Shown: positions 17,731-49,845 of the stretch, piece after piece | Numbering within the stretch: the first letter of the stretch is position 1 | Layout: every line of letters starts with the position of its first letter | Assembly: GCA_017519145.1 (NCBI GenBank) | Contig: JAFWTA010000022.1 | Span: 62,001-126,000, forward strand | DNA: 64,000 bases | Reading direction: 5' to 3' | Origin: Ruminococcus sp. | Lineage (GTDB): Bacteria > Bacillota > Clostridia > Oscillospirales > Ruminococcaceae | The notes under the pieces: model-generated | Told to the model about the DNA's origin: nothing | What the model saw: the letters and a program-made list of their open reading frames with translations, nothing else | Databases searched by the model: none | Program-made: the position numbers and the translations under genes

Positions 17731-17865
17731 TAGTCATTATGTATTTGCAACAAAGAACAATTGCTCAAATGAGCGAATATTCAAGCATTTCCGAAAATTA
17801 TTAACAGATTGTAAATTTTATTTCATTCCGTCTTATATACGTTTCTCTGTAATAATGGCAAAAAA

Positions 17866-17984
17866 GCCGCCTTTAGTTAGCTCCCTTTAACGAAAAATGT
17901 GGTTTTCCGAGCCCGTAATCATATGCCCGGTAATTTTATACCACGATCTCGTCGGAGGGAGCTCCCTTTAACGGCGGCTCACAT
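17866..17984 (-). ncRNA. Structured RNA element with terminator, copy 1
   Basis: Reading the minus strand from 17984 to 17866: closing stem AGCCGCC / GGCGGCT, then AGCTCCCT / AGGGAGCT, ACGA / TCGT, GTGG / CCAC and an apical CCGGGC / GCTCGG hairpin, with a conserved unpaired TATAAAATTA on the 5' side. It ends in seven U residues. It lies 16 nt after the stop of the O-antigen-ligase-like gene, on the same strand. A diverged copy is at 32756-32877. It may act as terminator, 3'-UTR element or source of a small RNA. The rest of 17731-18000 shows no gene. Confidence 0.7.
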
Positions 17985-18000
17985 TCTCATGCTTTTATTG

Positions 18001-19386
18001 TTAATTTTTTTCGTTTTTCTTTGTCTTTGAATGTCCGAGAGGGCGCTGGTTCTTCTTAGTGAGCAGCATACCTACGGTGATCCAGAAATAAGGCACCACG
18101 TTGACCACACTGCTGTTGAAGAATGCCTGTGCGGTATATCCGAAGAACATACCCATGAGTATCCAGTTGAGATATCTCTCCTCCTTGTCCTCGCTGCGGA
18201 TAACGCTTTTTACGCCTGTAACGGCTGTATAGATAAGGAGAGTGAGATATGTGATGAGCTGGAAAACGCCCTGTGTGACAAGGTAGTGTATGTACTCGTT
18301 GTGTCCCTTGCCCTGAGTGAACAGACCGTCAAAATTGGGGTCCGAGAGGAACACATCCCTGTAATTGTCAAGTCCGATACCGAAAGCCCAGTGCTCGGGA
18401 ACTGATTTAAGTCCCTGCTTCCAGATATATACTCTGCCGGAGCCCATACCGTCTCGTCCCATGTTAATGAAGCCGTCCCCTGACATTTCCGTCTTTGTCT
18501 GCTGAACTCTCTCGATTATCCTGCCGAAGAATACTATGGCGATGACCGTAACCACAGCCATACCCAGCAGCAGTACCAGCAGGCGCTTGATTATGCTCAT
18601 GAGCTTTTCTTTTTCGAGTCCTTTACGCTTCATGACTATAATGGACACCACAAGGAAGAGCATATAGCCGAAAACGCCCACCCATGCAAGACGGGCTTCC
18701 GCGGATATGAGCGTATAGAAGCAGATGACCGAAATGATATAGCAGGCATTTCTCATGACCTTATTCTGCGTGTACAGAAAGGCTCCCGATGTGCAGGCAA
18801 ACAGCAGAACAGTGAGACCGCCGTACCAGTTAGAGTGCTGGATAAGACCGTAGCTGCGCTTTGCCTTCATGATTATCTCCGTATCGAAATAGCAGTCTCT
18901 GAGGCTGATGCCGAAGGTCTGGAAAACGCCGAAAGACACCTGTATCACGGTGACGAGTATGAATATATTGATGAGCTTCTTTCTGAGCTGCTTGTCCTGT
19001 ATCATGGTGCCTGCCAGCATAAGGCTGAAATATCCCACGAAATTGAACAGCCATTCATCATAATAGAAGCCGTGGAAGGTGTCATACTTGTTCTGTGAGA
19101 GCACTGCCGACAGCACCGCAAACACGAACAGCAGGAAGTAAAGCAGGTCCGAGAGATAATACTTTATTCCCTGATGCTTCAGGAAGTGGACCGCAAAGAC
19201 AAAAATACCGAAGTAGCCTGCCATTTCCACTATTATGGGCTGGCTGGCGAACACCATGGAGTGGAGCTCGTCAAATATCTCCGTAACGGGCAGAGCTATC
19301 ATCACAAAGGCGATGAAATAGAAAAAGAACCGCTCCGACGTTATCAACTCAAAAAAACCCGATATTCGCTTTTTTATCTGCTCCAT
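18001..19386 (-). CDS. O-antigen ligase-like (Wzy/WaaL family) membrane protein
   Basis: A 461-aa protein with ten or more hydrophobic segments. The large periplasmic-type loop typical of the Wzy_C/O-antigen ligase family lies in the C-terminal half (GSGRVYIWKQGLKSVPEHWAFG, followed by KGHNEYIHYLVTQGVFQLITY), where the Arg and His of the ligase motif (R in GSGRVYIW, H in GHNEYIH) are present. Members transfer or polymerise lipid-linked glycans outside the membrane. It is divergent from the GT4 operon at 19.7 kb and shares its surface-glycan theme. The exact glycan is unknown. The terminator element at 17866-17984 follows. Confidence 0.85.
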   Translation of the reverse strand: MEQIKKRISGFFELITSERFFFYFIAFVMIALPVTEIFDELHSMVFASQPIIVEMAGYFGIFVFAVHFLKHQGIKYYLSDLLYFLLFVFAVLSAVLSQNKYDTFHGFYYDEWLFNFVGYFSLMLAGTMIQDKQLRKKLINIFILVTVIQVSFGVFQTFGISLRDCYFDTEIIMKAKRSYGLIQHSNWYGGLTVLLFACTSGAFLYTQNKVMRNACYIISVICFYTLISAEARLAWVGVFGYMLFLVVSIIVMKRKGLEKEKLMSIIKRLLVLLLGMAVVTVIAIVFFGRIIERVQQTKTEMSGDGFINMGRDGMGSGRVYIWKQGLKSVPEHWAFGIGLDNYRDVFLSDPNFDGLFTQGKGHNEYIHYLVTQGVFQLITYLTLLIYTAVTGVKSVIRSEDKEERYLNWILMGMFFGYTAQAFFNSSVVNVVPYFWITVGMLLTKKNQRPLGHSKTKKNEKN

Positions 19387-31122: not shown

Positions 31123-32745
31123 ATGAAAAACAAAAACTCAAAGGCGGCTGAAAAGAAGCCCCTTCCCCGAATACTGAAAAACAAATGGTACCTTTATATG
31201 ACAGAATTCTTTGCAGGAATGTCCGTCATGGCAGTGGAGCTGGGCGCAAGCAGGCTTCTTGCCCCATATTTCAGCTCCTCCCAGATAGTCTGGACCATCA
31301 TCATCGGCACGATCATGATAGCCATGGCTCTGGGAAACATCTACGGCGGCAGGAGTGCCGACAAGAACCCCGACCCCGACAAGCTCTACGGCAGGATACT
31401 CATTGCGGCAGTGTGGATAGCGGCAGTCCCCTTTATCGGAAAGCTTGCCATCGCAGGCATAGCAGGACTCCTCGTGGTCACCATAAACACCAACTTCCTC
31501 ATATGGGCAGCCTTCATCACCTGCATGGTGGTGTTCGTCTATCCTCTTTTCCTGCTTGGGACCGTCACCCCATCACTGGTTAAGTACACCGTTGACTCCC
31601 TTGACGACAGCGGCAGGACAGTGGGAACTCTGGGAGCTGCAAACACCATCGGCTCCATTATCGGAACCTTCGTCCCCACATTCATCTCTATCCCCGCGGT
31701 GGGAACAGCCGTGACATTCCTCATCTTCGCAGGAATAATGCTTGTTATAGGACTGGTCTACTTCATAAGTTCAAAACGCGGCGCAGCCAAGACAGCCACA
31801 GCCTCGGTGCTGTTCATCGTCTGCTGCTTTGCATCGCCGTCCATGGGCTTTGCATTCTGGGAAAAGGGGCTCACCTATGAGGGAGAGTCCGTATACAACT
31901 ATCTTCAGGTCAAGGACGATGACGAAAACACCTACCTTTCCACCAATGTACTGTTCGGAGTCCAGTCCGTCTATGTCAAGTCCGGAGAGCTTTCGGATAT
32001 GTACTATGACTACGCCATGGCAGCTCCTCTTATGACAGAGAGTCCCGACACAGCGGATATACTGGTGCTGGGCATGGGAACAGGCACCTACGCCAAGCAG
32101 TGTCTCAGGTACTTCAGCGGCGCAAAAGCCGAGGGAGTTGAGATAGACGAGAAGATAACCGACCTTGCACACAGTTATTTCGAGCTTCCCGAGGATATAA
32201 ATGTGACCACCTACGACGGACGGGCCTTTCTCGCTGCCTGTGACAAAAAGTATGACGTCATCATGGTTGACGCCTATCAGGATATAACCATTCCCTTTCA
32301 GATGTCCTCAGTGGAGTTCTTCACCCTTGTAAAGGAACACCTCAACGAGGGCGGTGTCATGGTAGTCAACATGAATATGCGCTCCGAGAGCGCCGACGGC
32401 ATAAACAGCTGTCTTGCGGACACTATCTCCTCGGTATTTGACAATGTAGTGACAGTTGACGTTGAATACTCCACAAACAGGGAGCTTTTCGCCACTGACA
32501 GCGACGAGTTCATGGACAGATTTGAAGCCAACACCGCAGCGCTGAAGCAGGAGGACCTGTGCCGCATGATGCAGATGGTCCGCCCCGAGCTTGAGCCGTA
32601 CACAGCAGGTGACCACATACTCACCGATGACAAGGCTCCCGTAGAGCTGCTTGGCATGAAGGTCATCGACGACATCATACAGGACGAGCTTGTGTACTAC
32701 AAGGAGGCATTCAAGGAAAAAGGCATCAAGGGACTGCTTGAATAA
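31123..32745 (+). CDS. Fused MFS-type membrane / spermidine synthase-like protein
   Basis: A 540-aa protein. The N-terminal half has about seven membrane helices (MAVELGASRLLAPYFSSSQI, GTVTPSLVKYTVDSLDDSGR). The C-terminal half is a spermidine-synthase-like methyltransferase fold with the nucleotide loop VLGMGTGTYAKQCLRYF, an acidic residue at GVEIDEKI and the VDAYQDITIPFQMSS loop where the catalytic Asp (VDAY) is placed. Real spermidine synthases use decarboxylated AdoMet and putrescine; the fusion family's substrate is uncertain. CAGGAGATA precedes the ATG. A structured terminator element follows 10 nt after the stop. Confidence 0.87.
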   Translation: MKNKNSKAAEKKPLPRILKNKWYLYMTEFFAGMSVMAVELGASRLLAPYFSSSQIVWTIIIGTIMIAMALGNIYGGRSADKNPDPDKLYGRILIAAVWIAAVPFIGKLAIAGIAGLLVVTINTNFLIWAAFITCMVVFVYPLFLLGTVTPSLVKYTVDSLDDSGRTVGTLGAANTIGSIIGTFVPTFISIPAVGTAVTFLIFAGIMLVIGLVYFISSKRGAAKTATASVLFIVCCFASPSMGFAFWEKGLTYEGESVYNYLQVKDDDENTYLSTNVLFGVQSVYVKSGELSDMYYDYAMAAPLMTESPDTADILVLGMGTGTYAKQCLRYFSGAKAEGVEIDEKITDLAHSYFELPEDINVTTYDGRAFLAACDKKYDVIMVDAYQDITIPFQMSSVEFFTLVKEHLNEGGVMVVNMNMRSESADGINSCLADTISSVFDNVVTVDVEYSTNRELFATDSDEFMDRFEANTAALKQEDLCRMMQMVRPELEPYTAGDHILTDDKAPVELLGMKVIDDIIQDELVYYKEAFKEKGIKGLLE

Positions 32746-32755
32746 ACAAACCGCA

Positions 32756-32877
32756 GGGACGCCCAAGGGGAGCCCCCTTTGGCGGAATCGTGGCATAAAA
32801 TTACCGAGCCCATAATTTCAGGCTCGGTAACCCACTTTTTCCGTTAAGGGAAGCTGACTAATGGGCGTCCTTTTTTT
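32756..32877 (+). ncRNA. Structured RNA element with terminator, copy 2
   Basis: Begins 10 nt after the stop of the fused spermidine-synthase-like gene. Closing stem GGACGCCC / GGGCGTCC, internal AGC...CCTTT / AAGGG...GCT, CGGA / TCCG, GTGG / CCAC and an apical TTACCGAGCC / GGCTCGGTAA hairpin, with CATAAAA unpaired on the 5' side, ending in TTTTTTT. Compared with copy 1 (17866-17984), the stems change on both sides while pairing is kept. About 115 nt of unexplained sequence (32878-32992) follow before the next promoter. Confidence 0.72.
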
Positions 32878-42932: not shown

Positions 42933-42948
42933 TGATAACGATAAGTTC

Positions 42949-43045
42949 CTCATCTTTCGGATAAAACCGCAGGAATTAGCACCTTCGACTCATGGTCGGG
43001 TTGCCGGGCTTCACAGGTCCTGTTACCTCCGCCGCTCTTGATAAG
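42949..43045 (-). promoter_or_regulatory. SAM-I (S-box) riboswitch aptamer
   Basis: On the minus strand the aptamer starts CTTATCAAGAGCGGCGGAGG, continues with the conserved AAGCCCGGCAACC and GAAGGTGCTAATTCC segments and ends with GATGAG, which pairs with the opening CTTATC as P1. The class is defined by these core motifs. It would bind AdoMet and promote the terminator at 42905-42932. Confidence 0.95.
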
Positions 43046-43056
43046 GTTATGAGAGT

Positions 43057-48762: not shown

Positions 48763-49845
48763 ATGAAAAGACGAATAGGAATCCTCACAAGCGGCGGCGA
48801 CTGCCCGGGACTCAACGCGACCATCAGAGGCGTGGCAAAGGCTTGCTACGAGCGTTTCGGCGAGGATAATGTGGAGATAGTAGGCATCTCCAACGGCTAC
48901 TACGGACTTATAAACAATCTCTGTAAGGACATGTCCCCTTCATCCTTCTCGGGAATACTGACACAGGGCGGAACTATCTTCGGCACCAAACGCCAGCCCT
49001 TCAAGATGATGCAGGTCATCGGCGAGGACAACATCGACAAGGTCAAGAACATGAAGGAGACCTACAAGAAGCAGAAGCTGGACTGCCTTCTGACCCTCGG
49101 CGGAAACGGCACACACAAGACCTCCAAGCTGCTGTCGGACGAGGGACTCAATGTAATAGGGCTCCCCAAGACCATCGACAATGATATCTACGGCACGGAC
49201 GTAACATTCGGCTTCCACACGGCAGTTGACATAGCAACCGACGTCCTTGACCGACTCCATACCACAGCCGCAAGCCACTCCAGAGTACTTCTCTGCGAGA
49301 TAATGGGCAACAAGGCAGGCTGGCTGACCCTCAATGCAGGTATTGCAGGCGGAGCTGATGTTATCATCATCCCCGAGATCCCCTATGATATCGACAAGAT
49401 CTGCGACGCAGTAATGGCAAGAAGCGCCAGCGGCAAGACCTTCTCAATAGTTGCCGTAGCAGAGGGAGCCTTTGACATCAACGAGGCAAAGATGAAGAAG
49501 AAGGAGCGCGCAAAGAAGCGTGCCGAGGCAGGCATACTCACCGCCACGAACCGCATTGCCGCTCAGATACAGTCCAACACAGGACTCGAAGCAAGAGTCT
49601 GCGTACCGGGACATATGCTGAGAGGCGGAGCTCCCAGTGCATACGACAGAGTGCTCTCCACCCAGTTCGGCGTACACGCAGCGTATCTCATCGCCAAGGA
49701 GCGCTACGGCAGAACAGTAGCCAAGATAGGCAACAAGATAACCTCAAACAAGCTTGAGGACATAGCAGGCAAGACCAAATTCGTAGACACCGAGAACCAC
49801 CTCGTTATCGCAGCCCGCGATATCGGAGTATCCTTCGGCGACTGA
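48763..49845 (+). CDS. pfkA: 6-phosphofructokinase
   Basis: A 360-aa enzyme of the PfkA family that phosphorylates fructose 6-phosphate. The nucleotide loop GILTSGGDCPGLNATIRG and the catalytic TIDNDIYGTD are intact, and HSRVLLCEIMGNKAGWL and PGHMLRGGAPSAYDR fit the family. The donor-deciding segment reads GGNGTHKTSKLL, then GLPKTIDND; typical ATP enzymes have GGDG and G, and PPi enzymes GGDD and K. This one combines G with K and has Asn (N115) where Asp is usual. Donor specificity cannot be assigned. GGAGGT precedes the ATG and a strong terminator follows. Confidence 0.92.
   Translation: MKRRIGILTSGGDCPGLNATIRGVAKACYERFGEDNVEIVGISNGYYGLINNLCKDMSPSSFSGILTQGGTIFGTKRQPFKMMQVIGEDNIDKVKNMKETYKKQKLDCLLTLGGNGTHKTSKLLSDEGLNVIGLPKTIDNDIYGTDVTFGFHTAVDIATDVLDRLHTTAASHSRVLLCEIMGNKAGWLTLNAGIAGGADVIIIPEIPYDIDKICDAVMARSASGKTFSIVAVAEGAFDINEAKMKKKERAKKRAEAGILTATNRIAAQIQSNTGLEARVCVPGHMLRGGAPSAYDRVLSTQFGVHAAYLIAKERYGRTVAKIGNKITSNKLEDIAGKTKFVDTENHLVIAARDIGVSFGD

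What the first reader, a model, noticed from the sequence alone, without database searches (positions are those of the whole stretch)
32756..32877. A two-copy structured RNA element with covarying stems (copy downstream of the spermidine-synthase-like gene)
The element folds as closing stem GGACGCCC/GGGCGTCC, inner AGC..CCTTT/AAGGG..GCT, CGGA/TCCG, GTGG/CCAC and an apical TTACCGAGCC/GGCTCGGTAA hairpin, ending in T7. A homologue at 17866-17984 has different bases in the closing stem (AGCCGCC/GGCGGCT) and the middle stem (ACGA/TCGT), but pairing is kept on both sides. The unpaired segment ATAAAATTACCG is conserved in sequence. Covarying stems plus a conserved bulge are what a selected RNA shows. 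I know no named motif with this layout, but I could not search.
Basis: partly seen in the sequence, partly recalled or inferred. Interest (0 to 1): 0.75.

Follow-up and report, generated by a model that had tools for sequence, protein, structure and literature searches.

The report
Mobile repeat inside transcription-terminator loops
What looked like a new structured RNA is a 95-base mobile DNA repeat of rumen Ruminococcus bacteria that inserts into the tip of the hairpins that end transcription, leaving both sides of the hairpin in place.

Summary
The two window copies (32756-32877 +; the other on the MINUS strand, 17860-17979) share a ~95-bp core. Their "covarying" closing stems are not homologous: each is the host's own terminator. 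At the spermidine-synthase site, relatives lacking the core carry the same terminator with a 3-nt loop (CGCCC-ATA-GGGCG then a T run); the window has 95 bp more, inside that loop. Of 15 sites compared, 9 have a clean empty counterpart, and a contig comparison added a tenth; net gain is 94-95 bp at nine of the ten. The family occurs in 40 of 125 genomes of the genus (table rows sum to 310 copies) and, by BLAST, in none of 39 order-level relatives. Eleven copies at ten different terminators share an identical 95-nt interior, so movement is recent. Both orientations to genes occur. No Rfam match. The mobilising enzyme was not found: IS1182-type transposases, Y1 transposases and reverse transcriptases each give no match in some copy-rich genomes. 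A second, unrelated miniature element also sits in terminator loops. Best reading: a non-autonomous, MITE-like element that targets terminator hairpin loops; a new variant of a known kind.

The parts
32756..32764 (+). 5' arm of the host intrinsic terminator (GGGACGCCC)
   Evidence: Same arm (one or two bases different in some) without the element in relatives G126, G047, G045; outside the homology between copies.
32766..32860 (+). Mobile element, copy A (95 bp, AGGGGAGCC...GACTA; type 1); ends uncertain by 1-2 nt because the loop is A-rich
   Evidence: Net gain 95 bp against the empty site; homology boundary; CM score 122 bits.
32863..32870 (+). 3' arm of the host terminator (GGGCGTCC)
   Evidence: Retained in the empty sites.
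32871..32877 (+). T7 tract of the host terminator
   Evidence: Sequence; T tract also at the empty sites.
17874..17968 (-). Mobile element, copy B (95 bp, type 1)
   Evidence: 88.5 bits.
17973..17979 (-). 5' arm of copy B's terminator (AGCCGCC)
   Evidence: Sequence and fold; no alignable empty site found.
17865..17871 (-). 3' arm of copy B's terminator (GGCGGCT), followed by a T run at 17860-17865
   Evidence: Sequence and fold.
31123..32745 (+). Gene ended by the terminator of copy A: spermine/spermidine-synthase-domain protein, 540 aa
   Evidence: PF01564 E 4.7e-14.
18001..19386 (-). Gene ended by the terminator of copy B: O-antigen-ligase (Wzy_C) protein, 461 aa
   Evidence: PF04932 E 5.1e-17.

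Best explanation
It is a non-autonomous, MITE-like mobile DNA element of about 95 bp (94 in a variant one base shorter) with no coding capacity, confined as far as searched to the Ruminococcus flavefaciens-type genus. It inserts into the apical loop (3-7 nt in the empty sites) of intrinsic terminator hairpins, mostly at or next to an A in the loop, in either orientation and without a recognisable target duplication. Both terminator arms and the A/T tracts remain. The element is an imperfect palindrome, so after insertion it folds on itself and the terminator arms can still meet; that termination still works, and that this makes the site harmless, is inference. Shown here: multi-copy dispersal, empty and filled orthologous sites, position in the loop, both orientations, identical copies in different terminators. 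Inferred: DNA-level transposition by an enzyme supplied in trans that recognises the hairpin or cruciform rather than a sequence. That enzyme is not identified.
For: Empty sites: copy A against G126, G047 and G045; eight more sites (lengths); a tenth from a contig comparison (GGGGCTGCC-AAC-GGCAGCCCC). Net gain is 95 (94 for shorter cores or one-base loop differences) at nine of these ten. Arms directly flanking the core pair over >=6 uninterrupted Watson-Crick pairs in 89 of 132 distinct copies, against mean 16.8 (max 28) of 132 with 3' flanks dealt among copies and 7.3% of 20,000 random intergenic positions. Eleven copies with an identical 95-nt interior (4 genomes, ten sites: L148 and L156 are one site in sister species), and four with an identical 94-nt interior in 4 genomes, lie in different terminators. 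Copies per genome 1 to at least 33 in 40 of 125 genus genomes, 40 in one genome when more candidates are scored at E<=1e-4. Of 121 copies with both neighbours assigned, 112 lie 3' of at least one gene; codirectional cases split 25 sense, 45 antisense; 5 of 129 overlap an ORF of 90 aa or more. Tandem units have a 95-96 bp period.
Against: No mobilising enzyme and no autonomous copy sharing the ends was found. Terminal inverted repeats are imperfect and there is no clear target duplication, unlike a classical MITE. 43 of 132 copies miss the strict 6-pair criterion (many have one mismatch, are tandem, or are old). The site at L139 gives net 98, not 95. Five of the 15 sites compared gave no clean empty site (L004, L146, L150, L151, L153; L150 only a similar terminator), and at L007 the relatives are also filled. 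Modest covariation inside the core leaves room for a function of the fold. No transcription or transposition data exist.
Confidence: 0.87

Rival explanations
1. A selected structured RNA (cis-regulator or sRNA ending in its own terminator) whose stems covary.
For: Very stable folds; inner stems show more double changes than shuffles (51 vs 31.8 +/- 4.0).
Against: Closing stems are pre-existing host terminators; both orientations to genes; identical cores at different sites; no BLAST match in 39 relatives outside the genus.
Confidence: 0.06
2. A mobile element whose insertion is not hairpin-targeted: it lands in A-rich intergenic DNA, and only insertions inside terminator loops survive because the fold keeps the terminator working.
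For: Most copies are intergenic and 3' of genes; most empty loops are A-rich.
Against: Insertions elsewhere in 3' intergenic DNA should be as harmless, yet by eye all 15 copies of the two largest identical groups have pairing arms (L019 with extra sequence between, L028 and L146 with mismatches), against 7.3% of random intergenic positions by the strict test.
Confidence: 0.12
3. A reverse-transcriptase-driven element: a UG26-type RT with its small partner protein and structured RNA copies the repeat into terminator loops.
For: The RT is commoner in element-bearing genomes: 13 of 40 versus 4 of 85 (Fisher p 7e-5). I assigned these 17 from score and length; 12 of them (all element-bearing) cluster by BLAST and two were matched to the UG26 model at >600 bits.
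Against: G008, G009, G128, G116 and G004 (the last 74% complete) show 10 to at least 33 copies and no RT match at 1e-10; the window's genome has only a retron-type RT; the RT's RNA is unlike the element; related genomes share both traits by descent.
Confidence: 0.06

Closest known systems
IS1272 / TnSha1 (IS1182 family by my recall; staphylococci; PMC4923244, passages read)
   Same: Inserts into hairpins, several of them confirmed terminators, without primary sequence specificity, without target duplication and in either orientation.
   Different: An IS with its own transposase that deletes part of the stem-loop by blunt cuts; here the arms are kept and the insert is in the loop. PF13751, which I took as the family's transposase domain from recall, has no match at 1e-6 in G101, G140, G008, G137 or the window's genome.
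YPAL / RU-2 of Yersinia (168 bp; PMC2229807, passages read)
   Same: Short palindromic non-autonomous repeat with empty/filled sites and targets spanning or next to dyad symmetry.
   Different: Target duplications of 3-26 bp are reported; none is evident here. Host and strict loop position differ; sequences not compared here.
Bacterial-C (group IIC) introns (PMC8919778, passages read)
   Same: Use intrinsic terminators as insertion sites with little harm to the host.
   Different: They insert just after the terminator and are ribozymes with an RT; here 95 bp inside the loop.
REP / REPIN with TnpA-REP (PMC8266576 and PMC3116915, search listing and start of abstract only)
   Same: Short intergenic palindromes proposed to move in trans.
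   Different: No Y1 transposase match at 1e-6 in G140, G126, G008, G137 or the window's genome.
SPRITE, RUP and BOX of pneumococcus (PMC10969869, passages read)
   Same: Small structured intergenic repeats, some inserted in one another or terminator-like.
   Different: SPRITE is described as terminator-like itself; here the terminator belongs to the host.

Membership tests
MITE (miniature inverted-repeat element) | Short, non-coding, dispersed in many copies | tested here: met
   95 bp; 40 of 125 genomes.
MITE (miniature inverted-repeat element) | Past mobility (empty and filled sites) | tested here: met
   Ten sites.
MITE (miniature inverted-repeat element) | Terminal inverted repeats | tested here: inconclusive
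   The whole element is an imperfect palindrome; the very ends (AGGGG / CTA) do not match well.
MITE (miniature inverted-repeat element) | Target-site duplication | tested here: not met
   No consistent duplication; 0-2 A residues are ambiguous.
MITE (miniature inverted-repeat element) | Parental IS with the same ends | tested here: not met
   Ends-only BLAST in four genomes (G101, G140, G126, G137): the lone-end hits that I opened were ordinary copies or a deletion derivative; some weak hits (E 0.19 and above) were not opened.
IS1182 / IS1272 hairpin-targeting group | Transposase of this family in genomes with young copies | tested here: not met
   PF13751 in 17 of 125; no match in G101, G140, G008, G137. 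It is present in G126, which also has young copies.
IS1182 / IS1272 hairpin-targeting group | Partial deletion of the target hairpin | tested here: not met
   Both arms retained.
REP / TnpA-REP | Y1 (RAYT) transposase partner | tested here: not met
   PF01797 in 32 of 125, 12 of them element-bearing; no match in G140, G126, G008, G137, though G101 has 12 (mostly fragments).
Group IIC intron | Insertion after the terminator stem | tested here: not met
   Insertion is in the loop.
Rfam families | Match to any of 4227 models | tested here: not met
   Window at gathering scores; copy A region at E<=10 gave two hits far below their gathering scores.
Selected structured RNA | Stem covariation among homologous positions | tested here: inconclusive
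   Closing stem: not homologous. Inner stems: 51 vs 31.8 +/- 4.0 double-changed cells.

The most novel reading that the evidence does not exclude
Terminator hairpin loops are a general landing pad in this genus: at least two sequence-unrelated miniature elements (the 95-bp family and a TA-ended family with 23-bp terminal inverted repeats) enter them, which implies one or more integration enzymes that recognise an extruded hairpin loop itself rather than a sequence and leave the stem intact; no such enzyme is described in the papers that my searches found.
Probability: 0.4. Interest if true: 0.75.

Novelty: new variant of a known kind. Interest (0 to 1): 0.6.

Why it matters
It gives a clear case in which different but pairing closing stems arise from a mobile element nesting in different terminators, a trap for any covariation screen of bacterial RNAs. 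It also points to a mode of integration, into the loop of a hairpin with both arms preserved, that would offer harmless and plentiful sites next to genes. Many recent insertions with empty counterparts, some in cultured R. flavefaciens strains, make the enzyme findable.

Tried and rejected
Covarying RNA: rejected as the main reading because closing arms are host terminators. Rfam at gathering and permissive thresholds: no real match. An automatic consensus fold of 32 cores gave only 13 weak pairs, so I wrote the structure by hand from single folds; the pair counts on A2 and A3 therefore lean towards it.

Mobiliser search: PF13751, Y1 and RT families over 125 genomes; none is matched in all genomes with young copies. 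UG26 membership for the association test was assigned by me from score and length; 12 of the 17 were fetched and cluster together, two were checked with PADLOC. Ends-only search for a larger relative in four genomes led to one deletion derivative (16 nt left in a loop, L248) and to ordinary copies (L249, L251, L252; L416, L417); some weaker hits were not opened.

Replication-strand bias in G035: 11 copies, 6 against 5 by my reading of the skew; no support for lagging-strand insertion, but few copies. Viral contigs (2 stretches) and two non-Ruminococcus hits (L107, L112): chance 19-mers.

Sites with no clean empty counterpart: copy B, L146, L151, L153; L150 only a similar terminator in G035 and G041; L007 filled in three relatives. 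Searches used wrong coordinates and are not used.

Absence from print rests in an open-licence library only.

Full report
CHECK OF THE OBSERVATION. The fold at 32756-32877 is real (-62.4 kcal/mol, z -6.0) and the second copy folds with a like z-score (-6.05), but that copy is read on the minus strand. Rfam has no match for either copy at gathering scores, and for copy A nothing meaningful at E<=10. Beyond the window, the own genome has 8 full copies and some degenerate ones. By BLAST in 99 genomes, own included, 23 have matches at E<=1e-3, all among the 60 of the same genus; none of the 39 others, all of the same order. A covariance model (R1, 32 cores) finds copies in 40 of 125 genomes of the genus at E<=1e-6. 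The row counts add to 310 (recounted), with at most 33 candidates scored per genome. With up to 150 scored at E<=1e-4, G038 has 40, G008 36, G101 15, G035 11. An exact 19-mer pattern in named genomes gave 37 stretches: two are chance matches (L107, L112); the other 35 hold the element or duplicate a locus that does and lie in records named R. flavefaciens or Ruminococcus sp., or in a few with broader or other names. I link handles to strain names by equal contig lengths: G101 = MA2007, G126 = SAb67, G038 = YRD2003, G008 = 'Anaerotruncus sp. MC2020'.

WHERE THE ELEMENT ENDS. Aligned copies share a sharp-edged core, AGGGGAGCC...GACTA(A), window 32766-32861; outside it the sequences have little in common except that the two sides of most sites pair. 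Two subfamilies differ in the centre (ATAAAATTACCGAGCC versus CGCAGGTTACCAAATATGAGCC) and share both ends.

EMPTY SITES. Downstream of the orthologous spermidine-synthase-like gene, G126 (98% protein identity) reads CAGGGGCGCCC-ATA-GGGCGTCC followed by a T run; G047 and G045 read alike, all without the core. I then compared flanks of 13 further copies with relatives (read) and copy B through its neighbour gene: 15 sites in all. Nine have a clean empty counterpart: L001, L145, L152, L149, L140, L105, L006, L003, L139. L150 has only a similar terminator; L007 is filled in all three relatives; L004 (copy B), L146, L151 and L153 have no alignable counterpart. A contig comparison of G101 and G140 (HSPs summing to 82 kb, 13 indels listed) added a tenth site, AAC in the loop. 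Measured net gain: 95 at L001, L145, L152, L149 and L140 (94 against one of three relatives), 94 at L105, L006 and L003, 98 at L139, and 95 at the tenth by reading (the script's gap difference was 93 because repeats at the edges align). Empty loops measured are 3-7 nt: ATA, AAAA, AAG, GAAT, GTAAAA, ATAAAA, TGAGTAA, TGATA, AAA, TTGC, AAATATC, AAC. No consistent target duplication is visible.

STATISTICS. From 211 table rows I kept 132 distinct copies (E<=1e-6, nearly full length, 30 nt of flank; orthologous insertions in different species are counted apart). 89 of 132 have >=6 uninterrupted Watson-Crick pairs between directly flanking arms; dealing the 3' flanks among copies gives mean 16.8, maximum 28 in 200 shuffles. 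Random intergenic positions of the loaded G101 and G140 contigs reach this in 7.3% of 20,000. A runs of 4 or more occur in the 5' flank of 97 copies and T runs in the 3' flank of 64. Of 129 copies with enough flank, 121 have both neighbours: 25 codirectional sense, 45 codirectional antisense, 42 convergent, 9 divergent; 3 lack one neighbour and 5 overlap an ORF. Copies thus sit mostly at 3' ends of genes in either orientation, with a lean to antisense.

RECENT MOVEMENT. Eleven copies with an identical 95-nt interior (genomes G101, G140, G008, G004) lie at ten different sites (L148 and L156 are one insertion in sister species), and four with an identical 94-nt interior (G045, G008, G038, G126) at four. 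Tandem head-to-tail units occur with a 95-96 bp period, the same length as the net insertion. One loop in G101 keeps only the last 16 nt, as expected from deletion between the repeats AAGGGGAGC at both ends (inference).

MECHANISM. A DNA-level mobile element entering hairpin loops, enzyme supplied in trans, explains loop position, both orientations, absence of coding sequence and sharp ends. The palindromic core refolds, so host arms can still meet; survival of termination is inferred. Inner stems: 51 double-changed cells against 31.8 +/- 4.0 in shuffles and 14-33 with partners slid, 81.5% of cells paired, 97 distinct rows of an alignment fitted to the structure, so fold maintenance is possible. 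I looked for an enzyme: PF13751 in 17 of 125 (7 element-bearing), Y1 in 32 of 125 (12 element-bearing), RT in 62 of 125. None is matched in all genomes with young copies. A UG26 RT cassette is enriched (13 of 40 against 4 of 85) but not matched in several copy-rich genomes, and confounded by descent.

A SECOND FAMILY. The contig comparison exposed another miniature element (109-338 bp, ends TAACC..GGTTA, 23-bp inverted repeats, longest open stretch 79 codons). Of 15 copies with both ends found in the loaded DNA, 10 reach the strict 6-pair criterion, and by eye four more have interrupted arms (in L158 and the G140 copy near 19,266 the 95-bp element or its remnant lies between the arms); only the copy at 49,412 of G101 C1 shows none. 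A few lone ends were not assessed. One empty/filled pair is GGCAGTCC-GTAT-GGACTGCC. Two unrelated families in the same peculiar site suggest that the site, not the element, is special.

KNOWN RELATIVES. IS1272 enters terminator hairpins but deletes part of the stem (PMC4923244, passages); YPAL targets dyad symmetry with duplications (PMC2229807, passages); bacterial-C group II introns insert just after terminators (PMC8919778, passages). No paper on this repeat was found, in an open-licence library only. Verdict: a new variant of a known kind, with a target preference that deserves an experiment.

Noticed in passing
G101 C1 (L377-L395) and G140 C5 (L396-L415), also L158, L212, L366: A second, sequence-unrelated miniature element (109-338 bp, 23-bp TIR TAACCRYRAYACTYATATAGAAG, TA at both ends, no ORF over 79 codons) also in terminator loops: 10 of 15 copies by the strict arm test, four more with interrupted arms by eye.
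   Followed up: partly
L363, L365-L370, L372-L376: UG26-type reverse transcriptase (12 loci): 10 of 12 with a recognised upstream ~175-aa protein (three tested: PADLOC RTasCOG2852), 11 of 12 with a conserved ~165-190 nt intergenic stretch upstream of the RT gene that folds strongly in the one tested (L366); flanking genes differ between most genomes.
   Followed up: partly
L364 (own genome, contig C38 61360-61926): Retron Ec107-like reverse transcriptase, 325 aa.
   Followed up: no
G038 C13:132705-132897, C15:108947-109139, C23:84194-84386, C29:159606-159798; L030, L108, L124, L137: Tandem head-to-tail copies, with a 95-96 bp period in the four G038 cases; in L030 two units appear to lie inside one terminator stem.
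   Followed up: partly
L248 near 2535-2550; L250: A terminator loop holding only the last 16 nt of the element in G101; in G140 the second miniature element has inserted next to it.
   Followed up: partly
window 42947-43047 -: SAM (S box) riboswitch, 84.4 bits.
   Followed up: no
   Followed up: no
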